Shown: positions 19,285 through 48,709 of the stretch, in pieces
Numbering within the stretch: position 1 is the stretch's first letter
How the letters are laid out: every line of letters begins with the position of its first letter
DNA from: Elusimicrobium minutum Pei191
GTDB lineage: Bacteria > Elusimicrobiota > Elusimicrobia > Elusimicrobiales > Elusimicrobiaceae
Direction of reading: 5' to 3'
NCBI RefSeq assembly: GCF_000020145.1
Contig: NC_010644.1
Location: 992,001-1,056,000 of the forward strand
Length of the DNA stretch: 64,000 bases
The notes under the pieces: model-generated
The model's database searches: none
Seen by the model: only the letters and a program-made list of their open reading frames with translations
What the model was told of the DNA's origin: nothing
Made by a program: the position numbers and the translations under genes

Positions 19285-20864
19285 ATGTCAATGTTCTGTT
19301 TTCAGTGCGAACAAACAATGAAGGGAACCGGGTGTACAATACAAGGAGTATGCGGCAAGGACGTGCCTACCGCATTAGAACAAGATAATCTTACCGCCGA
19401 AATGATTAATTTAGCGGCGGCGGTTACTATTTCTTCAAAACACTCAAAAAAAGCTGTTGAGCTTATTATTGACGGGCTTTTTACATGTGTCACAAACGTA
19501 GATTTTGACCATGCTAAAGTAGCCGAGGTAAAAGAAAAGGTGATAAAAGAACGCGAAAAAATACAAAAAGAAAATAATATAACAAGCGTTCTTTATAAAC
19601 CGCAAGATCTTTGGCAGGGCGATACGGACGACAGGTCACTGCGTTCCACGCTTCTTTTCGGTTTAAGAGGCATGTCCGCTTACGCTCACCACGCAAAAGT
19701 GCTCGGCGTTGAAGATGAGGAGGTCAACAATTGGTTTATTAAAGGTTTAAATTCTTTTACACAGAATTTAACTATAGAAGAAAGACTTTCCTTAATAATG
19801 GAATTTGGCAAAGTTAATCTGCGTTGTATGGAAATTCTGGACCAGGCCAACACCGCGGCTTACGGAACGCCCGAACCCGCCAAGGTTACCACAAATATAG
19901 AAAAGGCCCTTTTATTATAATAACCGGGCACGACTTAAAAGATTTAAAAATGCTTCTTGAGCAGACGCAAGATAAAGGAGTAAATATTTATACCCACGGT
20001 GAAATGCTACCCGCGCACGCTTACCCGGAACTAAAGAAATATAAGCATTTAAAAGGCAACTTCGGCACCGCATGGCAAAACCAGCAAAAAGAGTTTTCCA
20101 ATGTACCCGCGCCTATATTGTGGACGACAAACTGCATAATGATACCTCAGGCAAGCTATAAAGACAGGGTTTATACAACTTCCGTAGTGGCTTTCCCCGG
20201 AACCAAGCATATAGAAGCCGACGCTAAAGGACATAAAGATTTTAGCGCTTTAATAGAACACGCTATTAAGCTAGGCGGATATGCAAAAGAACAAAAAATG
20301 ACAGGTATTAACGGCGGCAGCGAACTTACTGTAGGTTTTGGAAGGCAAACGGTTTTAAACGCGGCCGACAAAGTTATAGCAGCTGTTAAAGAAGGCAAAA
20401 TTAAACACTTCTTTTTAGTGGGCGGATGCGACGGAGCAAAACCGGGCAGAAATTATTACACGGACTTTGTTAAAGAAACCCCCAAGGACACTATTATACT
20501 GACCTTGGCCTGCGGAAAATTCAGGTTTAATGACTTAGATATAGGAGATATTGACGGCCTGCCGAGAATAATGGATATGGGCCAGTGTAATGACGCTTAC
20601 GGCGCGATACAAGTTGCCCTTGCTTTAAGCAAAGCGTTTAACTTGCCTGTTAATGAACTTCCGCTTACGCTTGTTTTAAGCTGGTACGAGCAAAAAGCCG
20701 TATGCATTCTGCTTACGTTATTATCGCTTGGCATTACAAATATTTATCTGGGCCCCACGCTTCCCGCATTCTTATCTCCAAACGTGGTAAAGATAATAGT
20801 TGACACTTTCAAACTGCACCCGATAACTACGCCAAAGGAAGACCTAAAAAAAATATTAGGATAG
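19285..20864 (+). pseudogene. hcp: hybrid-cluster protein (hydroxylamine/NO reductase) with a -1 frameshift
   Basis: Two frames together make a full class I Hcp. The first (from 19285, GGAGG upstream) has the CX2CX8CX5C cubane motif at Cys5, 8, 17 and 23 and runs to a stop at 19920. The second carries ITGHDLKDL, YTHGEMLPAH, TTNCI, VGGCDGAKPGR, LACGKFRFND, MGQCNDAYGA and SWYEQKAV, that is, all hybrid-cluster ligands. The join falls at a run of four A (19901-19904); one extra A would restore IEKGPFIIITGHDL. All catalytic residues are intact, so this is either a very recent mutation or a base-calling error. If functional it would reduce NO or hydroxylamine. Confidence 0.85.
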
Positions 20865-39481: not shown

Positions 39482-40690
39482 TTAGAATCTTATCAGCATG
39501 CCGCCTTGCGCTTTATAAACATTATCTATTGAATGTTCATGGAAGCCGCCTACAGCTACATGAAGTTCAACGTTAGGGTTCATATTGTATTTCGCCATAG
39601 CGTTCGCTTCATAGGAGGTTGAGTCTTTAATATTTCTGTCATTAAAAGCAAAACCGTCTATCGAGAATACAAATTTATCTAAAGCCGCGAATTTCATGTC
39701 AACGCCTAAGTTGCCCACAAAAATATCTTCAAAGAAGAAATCCTGTGTCATTATAGCATTGTTATTAATTTCCTGGCCTACAATAATACCAGGTCTGTAG
39801 TTACCGTATGATCTGAAGTTTTCAGCACGAACGATTGTGCCTCTGGGCGTAAACGCGCCGAGATCAACGGAAGCATCAATTTTAAGTAAGCTGCCTTTAT
39901 CATGATCAAAAGCATCTTCCCCGCCCACGTTTCTGGCATATTCCGCTGATAAGGTGAATATATCAGCGTTAAATGTGCCTTTCGCACCGTAAATGCCTAA
40001 ATATTTTTCAGTAGTACCACTGCTAAAGCTAGAGCTATCGTCATTTCTGAAATTATAAAAGTAACCTTGGGCTTTAAAGTTATCATTTACGTTTGCTTTC
40101 ACATCTAAACCGAGAAGGGTAGCGTCCAAATCCACAGCAGTATCTAATTCTTCAACTTTAGAGTAGATAAAGCCCCATGACACCATTTCACCCGCGTAGG
40201 AGATTACAGCCGCGTCAACTGACTTAGCCTGCCTGTAATCCAACTGTCTTGTATTGTAGTGATTAGGACCAAAATATATTATGGCGCTGTCTTCATCACC
40301 ATAAAACTGGCGGCCTACTTTTGCCTCTAAGCAGCAAAAAAGGTTGCTTAAAACGACATTTGCTTCAATAAGATCAACTTCGTTAAGATAATCCTGAAGT
40401 GAGCGGCCTGTATGGTTTATACCCATATAACTACTGCCCGTGTTTTGGCCCCACATATTGTAGTATGCCATTGTTAAGTTAGCTTTAACATCTTCAGCCA
40501 GGTCAAAATTAAGACCGTAGAGAACTCTGAGTGTAATATTGCTGTATGAACCGCCGGGGCCCATAAATTCTCTGTTAACGGAATCGCCGATGACTTGTAT
40601 CTCACCGGTTGATTTTAAGTTTTTAAGTATATCTGCTTTAGCAGGTACTACTAAAGCAAGGACCAGAAGTAATCCAAGTAATTTCTTCAT
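39482..40690 (-). CDS. outer-membrane channel protein, copy 1
   Basis: 402 aa. The signal peptide is cleaved near VPAKA/DILK, amphipathic strands follow, and the protein ends in MLIRF (terminal Phe), so it is a large beta-barrel. It resembles alginate-export/porin-type barrels, but the family is not certain. It differs from copy 2 at about nine residues, among them Cys versus Asp in the LFCCLEAK block. AAAGGAG lies before the ATG; the promoter is TTGCTT-18-TACAAT (40729-40758). Such duplicated porins are usually abundant surface proteins. Confidence 0.85.
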   Translation of the reverse strand: MKKLLGLLLVLALVVPAKADILKNLKSTGEIQVIGDSVNREFMGPGGSYSNITLRVLYGLNFDLAEDVKANLTMAYYNMWGQNTGSSYMGINHTGRSLQDYLNEVDLIEANVVLSNLFCCLEAKVGRQFYGDEDSAIIYFGPNHYNTRQLDYRQAKSVDAAVISYAGEMVSWGFIYSKVEELDTAVDLDATLLGLDVKANVNDNFKAQGYFYNFRNDDSSSFSSGTTEKYLGIYGAKGTFNADIFTLSAEYARNVGGEDAFDHDKGSLLKIDASVDLGAFTPRGTIVRAENFRSYGNYRPGIIVGQEINNNAIMTQDFFFEDIFVGNLGVDMKFAALDKFVFSIDGFAFNDRNIKDSTSYEANAMAKYNMNPNVELHVAVGGFHEHSIDNVYKAQGGMLIRF

Positions 40691-40989: not shown

Positions 40990-42198
40990 TTAGAATCTTA
41001 TCAGCATGCCGCCTTGCGCTTTATAAACATTATCTATTGAATGTTCATGGAAGCCGCCTACAGCTACATGAAGTTCAACGTTAGGGTTCATATTGTATTT
41101 CGCCATAGCATTCGCTTCATAGGAGGTTGAGTCTTTAATATTTCTGTCATTAAAAGCAAAACCGTCTACCGAGAATACAAATTTATCTAAAGCCGCGAAT
41201 TTCATGTCAACGCCTAAGTTGCCTACAAAAATATCTTCAAAGAAGAAATCCTGTGTCATTATAGCATTGTTATTAATTTCCTGGCCTACAATAATACCAG
41301 GTCTGTAGTTACCGTATGATCTGAAGTTTTCAGCACGAACGATTGTGCCTCTGGGCGTAAACGCGCCGAGATCAACGGAAGCATCAATTTTAAGTAAGCT
41401 GCCTTTATCATGATCAAAAGCATCTTCCCCGCCTACGTTTCTGGCGTATTCCGCTGATAAGGTGAATATATCAGCGTTAAATGTGCCTTTCGCGCCGTAA
41501 ATGCCTAAATATTTTTCAGTAGTACCACTGCTAAAGCTAGAGCTATCGTCATTTCTGAAATTATAAAAGTAACCTTGGGCTTTAAAGTTATCATTTACGT
41601 TTGCTTTCACATCTAAACCGAGAATGGTAGCGTCCAAATTCGCAGCAGTATCTAATTCATTAACTTTAGAATAGATAAAGCCCCATGACACCATTTCACC
41701 CGCGTAGGAGATTACAGCCGCGTCAACTGACTTAGCCTGCCTGTAATCCAACTGTCTTGTATTGTAGTGATTAGGACCCAAATATATTATGGCGCTGTCT
41801 TCATCACCATAAAACTGGCGGCCTACCTTGGCTTCCAAACAGTCAAAAAGGTTGCTTAAAACGACATTTGCTTCAATAAGGTCAACTTCGTTAAGATAAT
41901 CCTGAAGTGAGCGGCCTGTATGGTCTATACCCATATAACTACTGCCCGTGTTTTGGCCCCACATATTGTAGTATGCCATTGTTAAGTTAGCTTTAACATC
42001 TTCAGCCAGGTCAAAATTAAGACCATAGAGAACTCTGAGTGTAATATTGCTGTATGAACCGCCGGGGCCCATAAATTCTCTGTTAACGGAATTGCCGATG
42101 ACTTGTATCTCACCGGTTGATTTTAAGTTTTTAAGTATATCTGCTTTAGCAGGTACTACTAAAGCAAGGACCAGAAGTAATCCAAGTAATTTCTTCAT
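40990..42198 (-). CDS. outer-membrane channel protein, copy 2
   Basis: 402 aa, about 98 percent identical to copy 1 by direct comparison. Substitutions relative to copy 1: Asp to Asn near residue 36, Cys to Asp in LFDCLEAK, Phe to Leu in IIYLGPN, and a cluster in KVNELDTAANLDATILGLD. It has the same signal peptide, ribosome site and terminal Phe. The -10 TACAAT (42237-42242) is kept, but the -35 region has become an AT-rich tract, so expression may differ. Confidence 0.85.
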   Translation of the reverse strand: MKKLLGLLLVLALVVPAKADILKNLKSTGEIQVIGNSVNREFMGPGGSYSNITLRVLYGLNFDLAEDVKANLTMAYYNMWGQNTGSSYMGIDHTGRSLQDYLNEVDLIEANVVLSNLFDCLEAKVGRQFYGDEDSAIIYLGPNHYNTRQLDYRQAKSVDAAVISYAGEMVSWGFIYSKVNELDTAANLDATILGLDVKANVNDNFKAQGYFYNFRNDDSSSFSSGTTEKYLGIYGAKGTFNADIFTLSAEYARNVGGEDAFDHDKGSLLKIDASVDLGAFTPRGTIVRAENFRSYGNYRPGIIVGQEINNNAIMTQDFFFEDIFVGNLGVDMKFAALDKFVFSVDGFAFNDRNIKDSTSYEANAMAKYNMNPNVELHVAVGGFHEHSIDNVYKAQGGMLIRF

Positions 42199-44164: not shown

Positions 44165-45748
44165 TTACACCGCACATAAATATGCTGCTACACCTGTGGG
44201 GAGACATCTTACAATACCTGTAGAAGGTTCTAAATATGGATTCCCATGTTGCTTATTACAACATCTGCAACCGCATTCACTTTCGTTCCACACGGCATAA
44301 GAAGCATTGTTACAATCATCAATTATCGATTGCGGGACTAACGGGCATGGTTTACTTTTACAGCATGCTCCGTCTTCGGTATATTGGACGGTTGTCCTCT
44401 GCTGGCCTATAGGACATGTAATGGGACATGATGTTTTGCATACTCCACCAACAAGGGTTTGCCCTGTGGGACATGTTTTTGCTTTGCAGCACGCTCCGTC
44501 TTCACTGTATTGCGCGGATGTCCTTTCCTGGCCCGTGGGACATGTGGCGGGACACGCTGTTTTACATACTCCACCAACAAGGGTTTGCCCTGTGGGACAT
44601 GTTTTTGCTTTGCAGCACGCTCCGTCTTCACTGTATTGCGCGGATGTCCTTTCCTGGCCCGTGGGGCATGTGGCGGGACACGCTGTTTTACATACTCCAC
44701 CAACAAGGGTTTGTCCGCTGCCGCAGGTTTTGGTTTGGCAACACGCTCCGTCTTCACTGTATTGCACGCTTGTTCTTTCCTGGCCCGTAGGACATGTCGC
44801 AGGACACGCTGTTTTAGCCGTGCAGCATGCTCCGTCTTCATAATATTGGGCACTTGTTCTTTTTTGACCCGTAGGACATGTTGCGGGACACGCTGTTTTT
44901 GTTACGCAGCAGGCTCCGTCTTCATAATATTGTACGCTTGTCCTCTGCTGTCCTGTAGGACACGTTGTAGGACACGCTGTTTTTGATACGCAGCATGCTC
45001 CGTCTTCATAATATTGGGCACTTGTTCTCTTTTGACCTGTAGGACATGTTGCGGGACACGACGTTTTTGATACGCAGCATGCTCCGTCTTCACTATATTG
45101 TACGCTTGTCCTCTGCTGGCCTGTAGGACATGTTGTCGGGCATGATGTTTTGGCTACGCAGCACGCTCCATCTTCCGTATACTGCACGCTGCTTCTTTTT
45201 TGTCCCGTAGGACATGTTGTCGGGCACGACGTTTTAGCTTCACAGCAAGGCCCGTCTTCCGAAAAAAAGTACCCTGTTCTTTTATATCCAGCCGCGCATG
45301 TTGTAGGACACGCTGTCTTCTCACACCCTTTTAAAACATTATCTACCATATCGCAGTCTTTGCCTATACAACACAATGCGCTGTCTTGGTAGCCTTTGGT
45401 TTGAACTATTGAATAATCTAAATCTTTTCTTTTGGCGTACGCCTGAGGGTAAGGATTATCTGAAAGAACATATGAAAAAAGTTTTGTGTCTAACGTGTTT
45501 GTTGTGGAGGTTTTGCCCGCTATTACTTCCCCCAAATCGCTAAACTTTACAGTATAGCCTTTGGCGGTGCCCGTGCCAAGTAAATCCCTGGATTCTTGTT
45601 TGTTCCTTATCTCTGTAAGGATGTCAAAAGCTTCGGCAGCTCTTGAGCGTTCTAACGACTTTCTGTACTGCGGCAAAGCTATAGCCGCTAAAATAGCTAT
45701 TACTAAAACTACCACAGCTATTTCTATTAAGGTGAACCCTTTTTTCAT
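44165..45748 (-). CDS. giant prepilin-like protein with Cys-rich tandem repeats
   Basis: 527 aa from the ATG at 45748 (AAGGAG upstream; the frame is open to 45802). The N-terminus is a class III signal, MKKG/FTLIEIAVVVLVIAIL with Glu5. A pilin-like part (to residue 146) is followed by ten tandem units (147-467). Units 1-6 are 28 aa with two Cys pairs (CPTTCPTGQ...EDGACC), units 7-9 are 42 aa with an added CPTGQTLVGGVC module, and unit 10 is 27 aa. A Cys-rich tail (468-527) closes the protein. Normal type IV pilins have 140-180 aa and one disulfide. The repeats would form a stalk or adhesin outside the cell. Confidence 0.85.
   Translation of the reverse strand: MKKGFTLIEIAVVVLVIAILAAIALPQYRKSLERSRAAEAFDILTEIRNKQESRDLLGTGTAKGYTVKFSDLGEVIAGKTSTTNTLDTKLFSYVLSDNPYPQAYAKRKDLDYSIVQTKGYQDSALCCIGKDCDMVDNVLKGCEKTACPTTCAAGYKRTGYFFSEDGPCCEAKTSCPTTCPTGQKRSSVQYTEDGACCVAKTSCPTTCPTGQQRTSVQYSEDGACCVSKTSCPATCPTGQKRTSAQYYEDGACCVSKTACPTTCPTGQQRTSVQYYEDGACCVTKTACPATCPTGQKRTSAQYYEDGACCTAKTACPATCPTGQERTSVQYSEDGACCQTKTCGSGQTLVGGVCKTACPATCPTGQERTSAQYSEDGACCKAKTCPTGQTLVGGVCKTACPATCPTGQERTSAQYSEDGACCKAKTCPTGQTLVGGVCKTSCPITCPIGQQRTTVQYTEDGACCKSKPCPLVPQSIIDDCNNASYAVWNESECGCRCCNKQHGNPYLEPSTGIVRCLPTGVAAYLCAV
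44348..45310. repeat. tandem repeats of 84 and 126 bp within the prepilin gene
   Basis: Ten in-frame units. The 126-bp units (7-9) are nearly identical in DNA, so recent copying or unequal exchange is likely. Confidence 0.9.
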
Positions 45749-45861
45749 TATTGTTAATGTCTCCTTATTGACATATACATATTCTTGATTAAATAAAACC
45801 ATTTATATGATTTCATTACATAAACGCACAAAACTGCTTTTTTATTGCATTTAACTATAAT

Positions 45862-46569: not shown

Positions 46570-46831
46570 ACTTCCTCCTAAATTTATCATACAAATATAT
46601 TTTACATAAATATCTTGTGCGTAACACACATTATTACAACGGCATCCTATATTTATTTATTGCCGTTGTGCCATATGTTTATAGTTATATCCATATAAAG
46701 CACCAAATATATTATAGAAATAAAACCGGCAGTTGTATTTTTTATCTTAAAATCTGAACTTTTTTAACTAAGATTTTTACAAAAGTCTGAAAAAGCATGT
46801 TGATATTATAAGTAATGTAAAATATCTCAGA

Positions 46832-46870
46832 AGCAAAACAAGCGCCTTTACAACAAAAGGAAGTTTTGCT
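46832..46870. repeat. hairpin repeat A upstream of tRNA-Asn
   Basis: AGCAAAAC...GTTTTGCT with inner CCTTT/AAAGG. It recurs 86 bp on. Between the two lies GCCGGG-N8-CCCGGC (46874-46893). The region 46630-47002 holds no gene that I can support. Confidence 0.7.
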
Positions 46871-46909
46871 AAAGCCGGGTAAACCTGCCCGGCGTGTCAA
46901 TAAGTTAAA

Positions 46910-46962
46910 ATATTTTGGCAAAACAAGCGCCTTTACAATAAAAGGAAGTTTTGCTAAAATAT
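46910..46962. repeat. hairpin repeat B upstream of tRNA-Asn
   Basis: Second copy of the hairpin, here with longer arms AATATTTTGGCAAAAC / GTTTTGCTAAAATATT (one mismatch). Confidence 0.7.
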
Positions 46963-47002: not shown

Positions 47003-47074
47003 TCCTCGGTAGCTCAATGGTGGAGCATTCGACTGTTAATCGAAGGGTTGCTGGTTCGAGTCCAGCCCGGGGAG
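47003..47074 (+). tRNA. tRNA-Asn (anticodon GTT)
   Basis: The acceptor stem TCCTCGG pairs with CCGGGGA. D stem GCTC/GAGC, anticodon arm TTCGA-CTGTTAA-TCGAA with GTT, T arm GCTGG-TTCGAGT-CCAGC. The 3' CCA is not encoded. A terminator follows at 47087. Confidence 0.95.
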
Positions 47075-47086
47075 CAATTTTGAGAC

Positions 47087-47149: not shown

Positions 47150-47569
47150 TTATATTAACAACATCTTCTTTAAAAGTATAAAACCAAGAACTATGGATAC
47201 CGCCAAAGCTATATAAAACTTAATTTGGTTCCACCGGATCTGGGTTTTCAGGTTTGTTATTTCGCTCTGATAAATCTGTAAGGATTCTTTGTATGCAGTT
47301 TCCAAGCAAAGTATTGTTTGCTTGGAGTCGGTCAAGGTCTGAGAGGCTTTCTCCTGCGACTTGGCTAACTCCGCCCGCGTACTCTTCAGCTGCGCTTGTA
47401 AGCTCGCTGAATTTGCCTGTAAGGTATTCATTTTCAGCTTCAAGACGTTGATTATAGACTCGGAGTCGCTCAATATCATTTTGTACTGTGGCTGGGGTTC
47501 TGACTGCTGGGCAACAGCCGGAGCCAAAAAGAATAACCCCAAAAAGAACAAGAATAATAATTTTTTCAT
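47150..47569 (-). CDS. spanin-like membrane protein, overlapping out of frame with the lipoprotein gene
   Basis: 139 aa. An N-terminal hydrophobic signal (residues 1-20) is followed by a long coiled coil rich in Gln/Ser/Lys (about 40-115) and a C-terminal membrane helix (FYIALAVSIVLGFILL). It starts 7 nt after the lipoprotein start and shares 350 nt with it in another frame. The layout suits an inner-membrane partner of an Rz/Rz1-like pair, although classical Rz has its anchor at the N-terminus. One of the two frames could be a chance ORF. Confidence 0.55.
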   Translation of the reverse strand: MKKLLFLFFLGLFFLAPAVAQQSEPQPQYKMILSDSESIINVLKLKMNTLQANSASLQAQLKSTRAELAKSQEKASQTLTDSKQTILCLETAYKESLQIYQSEITNLKTQIRWNQIKFYIALAVSIVLGFILLKKMLLI

Positions 47570-47576
47570 TTTTCAT
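47220..47576 (-). CDS. phage lipoprotein, o-spanin (Rz1)-like
   Basis: 118 aa. The lipobox FGSGC gives acylated Cys21. A coiled-coil segment (DIERLRVYNQRLEAENEYL) follows, and the tail is Pro-rich (NKPENPDPVEPN), as in outer-membrane spanins. Its ATG overlaps the endolysin stop (TAATG), so translation is coupled. Almost all of it lies inside the neighbouring 139-aa frame. Confidence 0.6.
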   Translation of the reverse strand: MKNEKIIILVLFGVILFGSGCCPAVRTPATVQNDIERLRVYNQRLEAENEYLTGKFSELTSAAEEYAGGVSQVAGESLSDLDRLQANNTLLGNCIQRILTDLSERNNKPENPDPVEPN

Positions 47577-48031
47577 TACCTTTCCATCCTTATATATTTT
47601 TTACCGTCATATTTCATAACTTCATTTTTATTACCAATGCTAATATGTATCCACTCTTTGCCTCCAGCCTGCTCCAAAATGAGTTGTCCGAAAGTCAGAT
47701 TGCTTTCACGGATAAGATCAAAAATACGAGCAACCCCAATCCCCCGGCAAATAAAGTCTATGGCTTCGCATTTCATATGCTGGCTTGTCTTACTGCCGCC
47801 GATAGATTCATTCAGCTCTGGGCAACGGATGGCAGAGGTTATAATCATAGGCACTCCCAAAACCGTGCGGACTGTCTCTCCGAAGTTTGCCAACTTCACA
47901 AGCTGGCTCATATTTAAAAGGCCATAATTCCAATTTGCCATTACAAACTTTTCATTGCTCGTATTGACCAGCTCTTTAAAGCTGAAATGTGGGGATAGCA
48001 CTTTATTATCTGTTGAGTGTGTATCTGTCAT
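47576..48031 (-). CDS. endolysin, peptidase M15 family
   Basis: 151 aa. It opens with the family block SPHFSFKELV and has zinc ligands in SQHMKCEAIDF (His, Asp) and WIHIS (His), with TSAIRCPELNESIGG between. It cuts peptide cross-links of the cell wall. AAGGAG lies 6 nt before the ATG at 48031; the frame is open ten codons further up, but that start is weaker. It sits between the holin-like and spanin-like genes. Confidence 0.9.
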   Translation of the reverse strand: MTDTHSTDNKVLSPHFSFKELVNTSNEKFVMANWNYGLLNMSQLVKLANFGETVRTVLGVPMIITSAIRCPELNESIGGSKTSQHMKCEAIDFICRGIGVARIFDLIRESNLTFGQLILEQAGGKEWIHISIGNKNEVMKYDGKKYIRMER

Positions 48032-48041
48032 ATCTCTCTCC

Positions 48042-48443
48042 TTATTTACCCGTATTATCAATTCTCATTTTGTCTAAAATTTTATCTATAGCTCCATTGG
48101 TATTGCTTATAGCCCCATTGGTTCTATCTATCGCCTGAAGGATAAGGGTGTGTTCATTTATCATGCGTTCATGTTCCTTGCGTTGTAATCCGCCTATTTC
48201 GTTTTGCTTCATGCCATAGGCTTTTACTTCCTCAACCAGCTTCGCAATAACATCCTGATTACTTTTAATAATTTGCAAATACTCTTTTTCTCTTTGGAGT
48301 GCAGTTTCTCTATCTAGCTTTTCTCGTTCAACCGTTTCCTTGCGCTCATTTTGCACATGCTTCCAATACGCCCACCCTATCGCGCAGGAGATAAGGGCGA
48401 AAATTCCGTTAGTGAGCAAAACATCCTTTGCAAGATTTTCCAT
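48042..48443 (-). CDS. holin-like protein (BhlA/UviB type)
   Basis: 133 aa. An N-terminal membrane helix (about residues 8-27, GIFALISCAIGWAYW) is followed by a highly charged coiled coil (about 30-130). BhlA-type holins have this layout, and the gene directly precedes the endolysin. Functional identity is inferred from position and topology. Confidence 0.65.
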   Translation of the reverse strand: MENLAKDVLLTNGIFALISCAIGWAYWKHVQNERKETVEREKLDRETALQREKEYLQIIKSNQDVIAKLVEEVKAYGMKQNEIGGLQRKEHERMINEHTLILQAIDRTNGAISNTNGAIDKILDKMRIDNTGK

Positions 48444-48463: not shown

Positions 48464-48709
48464 TTATCTAAACTGCTCAGAGGCATGCAAGCGGTCTTTT
48501 TCGCTTAGATATGCCTGATAACAATGATCTTCTTGCCAAAAAAAGAGCATATTTACTGACTTATAAAGAAAGAGCCGCCATAATGATTTTTGTTTGCCTA
48601 TCCGAGCATAATAGTAACAGGCGGCCGACATTGTAATGTCCGGGTCGCCGTTCATTAAAGCATTTGCCAACTGATCTAATGCTATGAGTATTTTTATTCC
48701 ATATTTCAT
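48464..48709 (-). CDS. small conserved phage protein
   Basis: 81 aa. The patterns IALDQLANALMNGDPD and MLFFWQEDHCYQAY look like a short protein found near the lysis genes of many Mu-like and other phages; its function is unknown. Its start overlaps the previous stop by 4 nt (48706-48709). Confidence 0.65.
   Translation of the reverse strand: MKYGIKILIALDQLANALMNGDPDITMSAACYYYARIGKQKSLWRLFLYKSVNMLFFWQEDHCYQAYLSEKDRLHASEQFR

What the first reader, a model, noticed from the sequence alone, without database searches (positions are those of the whole stretch)
47150..47576. Two spanin-like genes sharing 350 nt in different frames
One frame gives a lipoprotein (lipobox, coiled coil, Pro-rich tail). 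The other gives a protein with signal, coiled coil and C-terminal membrane helix. They start 7 nt apart behind the endolysin. Nested Rz1 in Rz is known in lambda, but there the start points are far apart and the inner-membrane partner has an N-terminal anchor.
Basis: partly seen in the sequence, partly recalled or inferred. Interest (0 to 1): 0.68.

Follow-up and report, generated by a model that had tools for sequence, protein, structure and literature searches.

The report
Dual-frame spanin pair, inverted inner-membrane anchor
A prophage in a gut bacterium (probably Elusimicrobium minutum) seems to write two different cell-bursting proteins, one for the outer and one for the inner membrane, almost on top of each other in one 430-base stretch read in two frames, with the inner-membrane protein anchored at the opposite end from all well-studied examples.

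Summary
On the minus strand, ORF B (47576-47220, 118 aa: lipoprotein signal, helices, Pro-rich tail) and ORF A (47569-47150, 139 aa: signal peptide, Pro/Gly-free helix, C-terminal membrane helix) start 7 nt apart and share 350 nt in different frames, directly behind an M15 endolysin at the tRNA-Asn end of a ~37.7 kb prophage.

Neither ORF looks like a by-product of the other. Chance of staying open is 1-2e-4 for A given B and 3e-6 to 9e-5 for B given A. A is more gene-like than 2000 of 2000 stop-free synonymous recodings of B (z 3.3-4.6; 19 control out-of-frame ORFs: -2.1 to +1.8). Each start has its own Shine-Dalgarno sequence.

No true homologue of either ORF was found in 341 phylum genomes, IMG/VR, GTDB genomes (A only) or 50,697 phages, so conservation cannot be tested. 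The nearest syntenic prophage carries an ordinary Rz/Rz1-type pair in the same end-of-cassette slot.

Best reading: a two-component spanin with a type I, C-terminally anchored i-spanin, a topology that Kongari et al. 2018 named as possible but excluded from their criteria. No similar pair appeared at 156 other IMG/VR M15 endolysin loci. Spanin function is inferred, not shown.

The parts
47220..47576 (-). ORF B: putative o-spanin. Lipoprotein signal (aa 1-20), lipid Cys21, extra Cys22 and Cys94, predicted helices aa 28-73 and 78-107, disordered Pro-rich tail (PENPDPVEPN)
47150..47569 (-). ORF A: putative type I (C-terminally anchored) i-spanin. Signal peptide with AVA|QQ cleavage site, predicted continuous helix aa 33-138, one Cys (88), C-terminal membrane helix
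47171..47218 (-). C-terminal membrane helix of A (aa 118-133, FYIALAVSIVLGFILL, then KKMLLI); lies beyond the stop of B, so not imposed by overlap; the 23-codon tail has normal coding bias
   Evidence: LLR 0.198 per codon against a gene mean of 0.245
47587..47591 (-). Shine-Dalgarno AAGGA for B, aligned spacing 7
47579..47583 (-). Shine-Dalgarno AAAGG for A, aligned spacing 5
   Evidence: only 4.1% of 195 out-of-frame internal ATGs have a match of 5 or more
47576..48031 (-). Peptidase_M15_3 endolysin (151 aa, ATG at 48031); its stop overlaps the start of B (TAATG)
   Evidence: Pfam E=1.2e-16; PHROG endolysin E=9e-29
48042..48443 (-). BhlA/UviB-like holin candidate (N-terminal TM plus coiled coil), weak family evidence
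   Evidence: BhlA E=0.67, below cutoff; phrog_2429 E=1.5e-5
48464..48709 (-). phrog_3342-family protein of unknown function next to the lysis genes
   Evidence: E=4e-23
47003..47075 (+). tRNA-Asn at the prophage end; its 3' part holds the 14-bp att core TCCAGCCCGGGGAG (47061-47074), repeated at genome position 1076745 beside an integrase-like gene

Best explanation
A and B are both translated and form a two-component spanin for the last step of lysis. B is exported, lipidated on Cys21 and held in the outer membrane with its C-terminus towards the cell. A is exported by a cleaved signal peptide and anchored in the inner membrane by its C-terminal helix, so its long periplasmic helix points to the outer membrane. 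The two chains therefore run in the same direction across the periplasm and together reproduce the anchor polarity of a unimolecular spanin (lipid at the N end, membrane helix at the C end), but split over two proteins written in two frames of the same DNA. Both are produced from one mRNA by two start codons 7 nt apart, each with its own Shine-Dalgarno, B also being coupled to the endolysin stop. After holin and endolysin action they would bundle and fuse inner and outer membranes. Shown here: the ORFs, their non-random openness and coding bias, signals and position. Inferred: translation of both, topology, interaction, membrane fusion.
For: Position directly behind the M15 endolysin at the end of the prophage. 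The syntenic prophage G040 (tail protein 55% identical) and the M15 loci in G023 and G098 have canonical i-/o-spanin pairs downstream of the endolysin (G040 i-spanin phrog_1026 Rz-like E=1.3e-7). P(open) 1e-4 to 3e-6 for each frame given the other; A core has no Pro/Gly in 84 residues (P 0.0003-0.0023); B has excess N-terminal hydrophobicity (P 0.0013-0.0017) and a Pro tail (P 0.001). Codon-bias z for A given B 3.3-4.6 (0 of 2000), for B given A about 2.0 (P 0.027), controls -2.1 to +1.8. Separate SD sites. AlphaFold2 single-sequence model of A: one helix 33-138, mostly pLDDT over 90; of B: two helices plus unstructured tail. Both chains have periplasmic Cys, a feature PMC6139136 proposes as universal in two-component spanins (abstract). 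Weak phrog_13 Rz-like match of A, E=0.036.
Against: No homologue in any collection, so no conservation or dN/dS test. All family matches are below cutoffs. Structure comparison with viral proteins finds nothing. The catalogued i-spanins are N-terminally anchored. The lipobox is not optimal at -3. Statistical tests were chosen after seeing the sequence. The A and B models are single-sequence predictions, and coiled-coil proteins are easily predicted helical.
Confidence: 0.62

Rival explanations
1. Only B is a real gene (an o-spanin or other phage lipoprotein). A is an accidental open frame; T-rich signal codons of B make its N-terminus hydrophobic in the shifted frame.
For: B has the better codon bias (0.093 against -0.030) and the normal GC1>GC3 pattern. 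The IMG/VR provirus record ends exactly at the stop of B and cuts A at residue 116, which suggests the gene caller chose B. Another 118-codon chance frame exists in the window.
Against: A open given B has P about 1-2e-4; A is more gene-like than 2000 of 2000 open recodings of B while 19 control frames show no excess; no Pro/Gly in its core; its tail beyond B has coding bias and a membrane helix; own SD. B would then also lack an obvious inner-membrane partner.
Confidence: 0.17
2. B is the o-spanin, and its inner-membrane partner is the BhlA-like protein 48042-48443 (N-terminal TM plus coiled coil); A is accidental or has another role.
For: The BhlA-like protein has an N-terminal TM and long coiled coil, as i-spanins do, and is adjacent to the endolysin.
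Against: Flank charges (-1 before, +1 after the TM) weakly favour a cytoplasmic C-terminus. In G040, G023 and G098 a similar short TM/coiled-coil gene lies before the endolysin together with a separate i-/o-spanin pair.
Confidence: 0.1
3. Both frames are translated but act in another envelope role, for example A as a regulator of holin action or as a superinfection-exclusion factor and B as a lipoprotein of a different function.
For: No sequence match identifies either as a spanin. A type I protein with signal, coiled coil and C-terminal TM also sits next to an M15 endolysin in an unrelated phage (L102 2052-2483) with no lipoprotein overlapping it.
Against: The presumed diderm host needs outer-membrane disruption (general knowledge); the slot is the spanin slot in relatives; no other lipoprotein candidate was seen in the cassette.
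Confidence: 0.08
4. The two ORFs are expressed partly as one protein: a +1 shift from B into A would join the lipoprotein N-terminus to the C-terminal membrane helix and make a true unimolecular spanin.
For: B plus the A tail has exactly the layout of a u-spanin (layout from PMC6139136).
Against: No stop-type +1 shift site in B; the only -1 heptamers found are at the chance level. A has its own start and SD.
Confidence: 0.03

Closest known systems
Lambda Rz/Rz1 (embedded two-component spanin)
   Same: i-spanin and o-spanin sharing DNA in different frames in the lysis cassette; lipoprotein partner with Pro-rich part; helical inner-membrane partner; Cys in both chains
   Different: Here the o-spanin starts 7 nt before the i-spanin (-0.02 L) and ends at 0.83 L, whereas about 70% of embedded o-spanins start at 0.4-0.5 L (PMC6139136). 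The i-spanin has a signal peptide and a C-terminal anchor instead of an N-terminal one. No sequence similarity.
T1 gp11 unimolecular spanin
   Same: Anchor polarity: lipid at the N end in the outer membrane, membrane helix at the C end in the inner membrane
   Different: Two proteins instead of one; periplasmic parts predicted helical, not mainly beta
Overlapped Rz/Rz1-type pairs of the related prophages G040 (L070), G023 (L008), G098 (L014)
   Same: Slot behind the endolysin in the same bacterial family; overlapping frames
   Different: N-terminally anchored 74-81 aa i-spanins; o-spanin starts about 120-140 nt inside the i-spanin; overlaps of roughly 80-115 nt; unrelated sequences
Type I coiled-coil protein in lysis cassette L102 (2052-2483)
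   Same: Signal peptide, coiled coil, C-terminal membrane helix, next to an M15_3 endolysin
   Different: No overlapping lipoprotein; 22% identity, not significant

Membership tests
Two-component spanin | Outer-membrane lipoprotein (signal plus lipobox) encoded in or near the lysis cassette | tested here: met
   B fits a PS51257-type pattern at Cys21 and lies next to the endolysin; sorting to the outer membrane not testable
Two-component spanin | Integral inner-membrane partner with periplasmic domain, next to or overlapping the lipoprotein gene | tested here: met
   A: signal peptide plus C-terminal TM; periplasmic core whether or not the signal is cleaved; by prediction only
Two-component spanin | i-spanin is a type II protein with N-terminal TMD (criterion of SpaninDB, PMC6139136) | tested here: not met
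   A is type I with a C-terminal TMD; the paper itself says this topology was not considered but could serve
Two-component spanin | Sequence family match to known spanins | tested here: inconclusive
   Only phrog_13 Rz-like at E=0.036 for A; over 40% of known spanin families are singletons
Two-component spanin | Outer-membrane disruption, complementation of Rz/Rz1 defect | not testable with these tools
   needs bench work
Embedded spanin architecture | o-spanin reading frame wholly inside the i-spanin frame | tested here: not met
   B starts 7 nt before A; 350 of 357 nt lie inside A
Unimolecular spanin | One protein with lipobox and C-terminal TMD | tested here: not met
   The two features are in different frames and different ORFs

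The most novel reading that the evidence does not exclude
A new spanin class: a split, u-spanin-polarity pair in which a type I i-spanin and a lipoprotein o-spanin run parallel across the periplasm, both born from one DNA segment by overprinting with nearly coincident start codons.
Probability: 0.5. Interest if true: 0.75.

Novelty: new variant of a known kind. Interest (0 to 1): 0.58.

Why it matters
It would be a concrete candidate for the C-terminally anchored i-spanin that the field named as possible but did not look for (PMC6139136), and so a handle on how some apparently spanin-less phages open the outer membrane. It would show that the direction of the inner-membrane chain is free, which constrains models of spanin-driven membrane fusion (in lambda the two C-termini meet; here the chains would be parallel). 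It is also a case of about 98% overlap of one gene by another with both signal sequences encoded in the same bases, directly testable with frame-specific stops. I found no spanin paper on Elusimicrobiota.

Tried and rejected
Homologue search of A and B in 341 Elusimicrobiota genomes: only self plus weak coiled-coil/signal similarities; for A, L002 is a 184-aa protein with no C-terminal TM and L003 has internal stops; B's hits are at E 0.002 or worse. IMG/VR: only the same provirus. GTDB genome contigs with A: none. Phages by tblastn: tape-measure and other chance matches. Foldseek against viral structures: nothing. NCBIfam and Pfam: nothing above cutoffs. Scan of 156 IMG/VR M15_3 endolysin loci for another lipoprotein plus type I dual-frame pair: 0, against 13 loci with canonical overlapping pairs by the same crude detector. 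Kinship of A with the type I protein of L102: 22% identity and E about 0.06 in a tiny database, not accepted. Frameshift sites joining the frames: only chance-level heptamers. Overlap-aware dN/dS: impossible without homologues; replaced by conditional recoding nulls.

Full report
WHAT IS THERE. On the minus strand the window holds, in transcription order, a small phrog_3342-family gene (48709-48464), a BhlA/UviB-like holin candidate (48443-48042), a Peptidase_M15_3 endolysin (48031-47576), and then two ORFs that share DNA: B (47576-47220, 118 aa) and A (47569-47150, 139 aa). B's ATG overlaps the endolysin stop (TAATG). A's ATG lies 7 nt further on; a TGA in its frame just upstream means it has no earlier start. 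They share 350 nt; the third frame carries 16 stops. The next feature is a tRNA-Asn (47003-47075) whose 3' end holds a 14-bp att core, TCCAGCCCGGGGAG, repeated at genome position 1076745 beside an integrase-like gene, so the prophage is about 37.7 kb.

ARE BOTH FRAMES REAL? With no homologues I used recoding nulls: fix one protein, draw synonymous codons from prophage or host usage, and ask what the other frame looks like. The exact probability that A stays open given B is 1.2e-4 to 2.1e-4, and that B stays open given A is 3.5e-6 to 8.7e-5. Openness is not enough, since the window has another 118-codon out-of-frame run, so I compared qualities after conditioning on openness. The core of A has no Pro or Gly in 84 residues (null mean 5.4-7.2, P 0.0003-0.0023) and higher helix propensity (P 0.0007-0.0047); its N-terminus is more hydrophobic than forced (P 0.011-0.037). 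B has a more hydrophobic signal (P 0.0013-0.0017), better heptad score (P 0.03-0.04) and a Pro-rich tail (P 0.001); a lipobox match alone is common in the null (about 40%) and proves nothing. Codon-bias log-odds: A given B z = 3.3 (prophage usage) or 4.6 (host usage), 0 of 2000 draws; B given A z about 2.0 (P 0.027). Nineteen out-of-frame runs of 60 or more codons inside other genes of the window, taken as controls, give z from -2.1 to +1.8. Both frames score between true genes and shifted frames, as expected of dual coding. The 23-codon tail of A beyond B, which encodes the membrane helix, has near-normal coding bias (0.198 against a gene mean of 0.245). These tests were chosen after seeing the sequence and are not independent of each other.

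STARTS. B has AAGGA at aligned spacing 7 and A has AAAGG at aligned spacing 5; only 4.1% of 195 internal out-of-frame ATGs have a match of 5 nt or more. So one mRNA can plausibly feed both starts, with B also coupled to the endolysin stop (inference).

PROTEINS. A: MKK n-region, 12-residue hydrophobic core, AVA|QQ signal-peptidase I site, then a helix that AlphaFold2 (single sequence) draws unbroken from residue 33 to 138, running into the C-terminal membrane helix, followed by KKMLLI. Whether the signal is cleaved or not, the core is periplasmic and the C-terminus cytoplasmic by prediction. B: signal, Cys21 as lipid attachment, helices 28-73 and 78-107, unstructured Pro-rich end. Periplasmic cysteines: Cys88 in A; Cys22 and Cys94 in B. 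Foldseek against viral models finds nothing.

SLOT. The best syntenic relative, prophage G040 (tail protein 55% identical over 517 residues), carries at the same end of its late region a BhlA-like gene, a lysozyme-type endolysin (phrog_7, E=2.4e-22), a holin-like gene, and a canonical pair: a 77-aa N-terminally anchored i-spanin (phrog_1026 Rz-like, E=1.3e-7) overlapped by a lipoprotein. G023 and G098, whose M15 endolysins are relatives of this one (46% and 39%), have the same kind of pair. So the slot is a spanin slot, the lysis module has been swapped here, and the BhlA-like protein is unlikely to be the i-spanin, because it coexists with Rz-type genes there.

MECHANISM. Holin action releases the endolysin, the wall is cut, and the A-B complex, tethered by lipid to the outer and by a helix to the inner membrane, bundles and fuses the two. 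In lambda the chains are anchored at their N-termini and meet at their C-termini; here both chains would run from outer to inner membrane, like a T1 gp11 u-spanin cut in two. Translation of both, topology, interaction and fusion are inferred.

COMPARISON. Kongari et al. 2018 (PMC6139136) list 528 two-component systems: embedded, overlapped and separated. About 70% of embedded o-spanins start at 0.4-0.5 of the i-spanin length; here the start is at -0.02 and the end at 0.83. Their i-spanins are N-terminally anchored by criterion; [quoted passage not shown] More than 40% of their families are singletons, so lack of homologues does not count against a spanin. By their definitions this pair fails the type II criterion and the strict embedded criterion, and neither ORF is a u-spanin; it works like a two-component spanin but is a new variant. 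Of 156 IMG/VR M15 loci, none has a lipoprotein plus type I dual-frame pair, though the detector is crude. One locus (L102) has a type I coiled-coil protein directly before the endolysin without an overlapping lipoprotein, so type I proteins in lysis cassettes may recur.

LIMITS. No homologue in 341 phylum genomes, IMG/VR, GTDB contigs (A only) or 50,697 phage records; metagenome contigs were not available.

Noticed in passing
19285-20864 (+): Hydroxylamine reductase (hybrid-cluster protein) is split over two overlapping frames: 19285-19920 matches the N-terminal part and 19824-20864 the C-terminal part of TIGR01703. A frameshift mutation, sequencing error or recoding near 19910.
   Followed up: partly
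39482-40690 and 40990-42198 (-): Two tandem, nearly identical 402-aa outer-membrane-type proteins with signal peptides; recent duplication or gene conversion.
   Followed up: no
44165-45802 (-): Type IV pilin-like N-terminus joined to a long array of Cys-rich tandem repeats (CPTTCPTGQ...EDGACC); the repeats also keep long open frames in other frames.
   Followed up: no
46830-46960 (+): Two near-identical copies of GCAAAACAAGCGCCTTTACAA[CT]AAAAGGAAGTTTTGCTAAA in the intergenic space beside tRNA-Asn; a 13-nt part of the motif (GCAAAACAAGCGC) also occurs in inverted orientation further along, in or near the prophage.
   Followed up: no
L032 / G000:C1 about 1170291-1170665: A second M15 endolysin (43% identical) with small membrane-protein genes on both sides lies next to a feoB-like gene in this genome and in two congeners (G078, G079), with no spanin seen downstream: an old, perhaps domesticated, prophage remnant.
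   Followed up: partly
L102 2052-2483 (+): Signal peptide plus coiled coil plus C-terminal membrane helix protein directly before an M15 endolysin in an unrelated IMG/VR phage; no overlapping lipoprotein. Possible second type I lysis protein.
   Followed up: partly
47220 (prophage end in IMG/VR record IMGVR_UViG_642555127_000001): The IMG/VR provirus stops exactly at the stop codon of B and cuts A at residue 116; the true end by att core is about 150 nt further, in the tRNA.
   Followed up: yes
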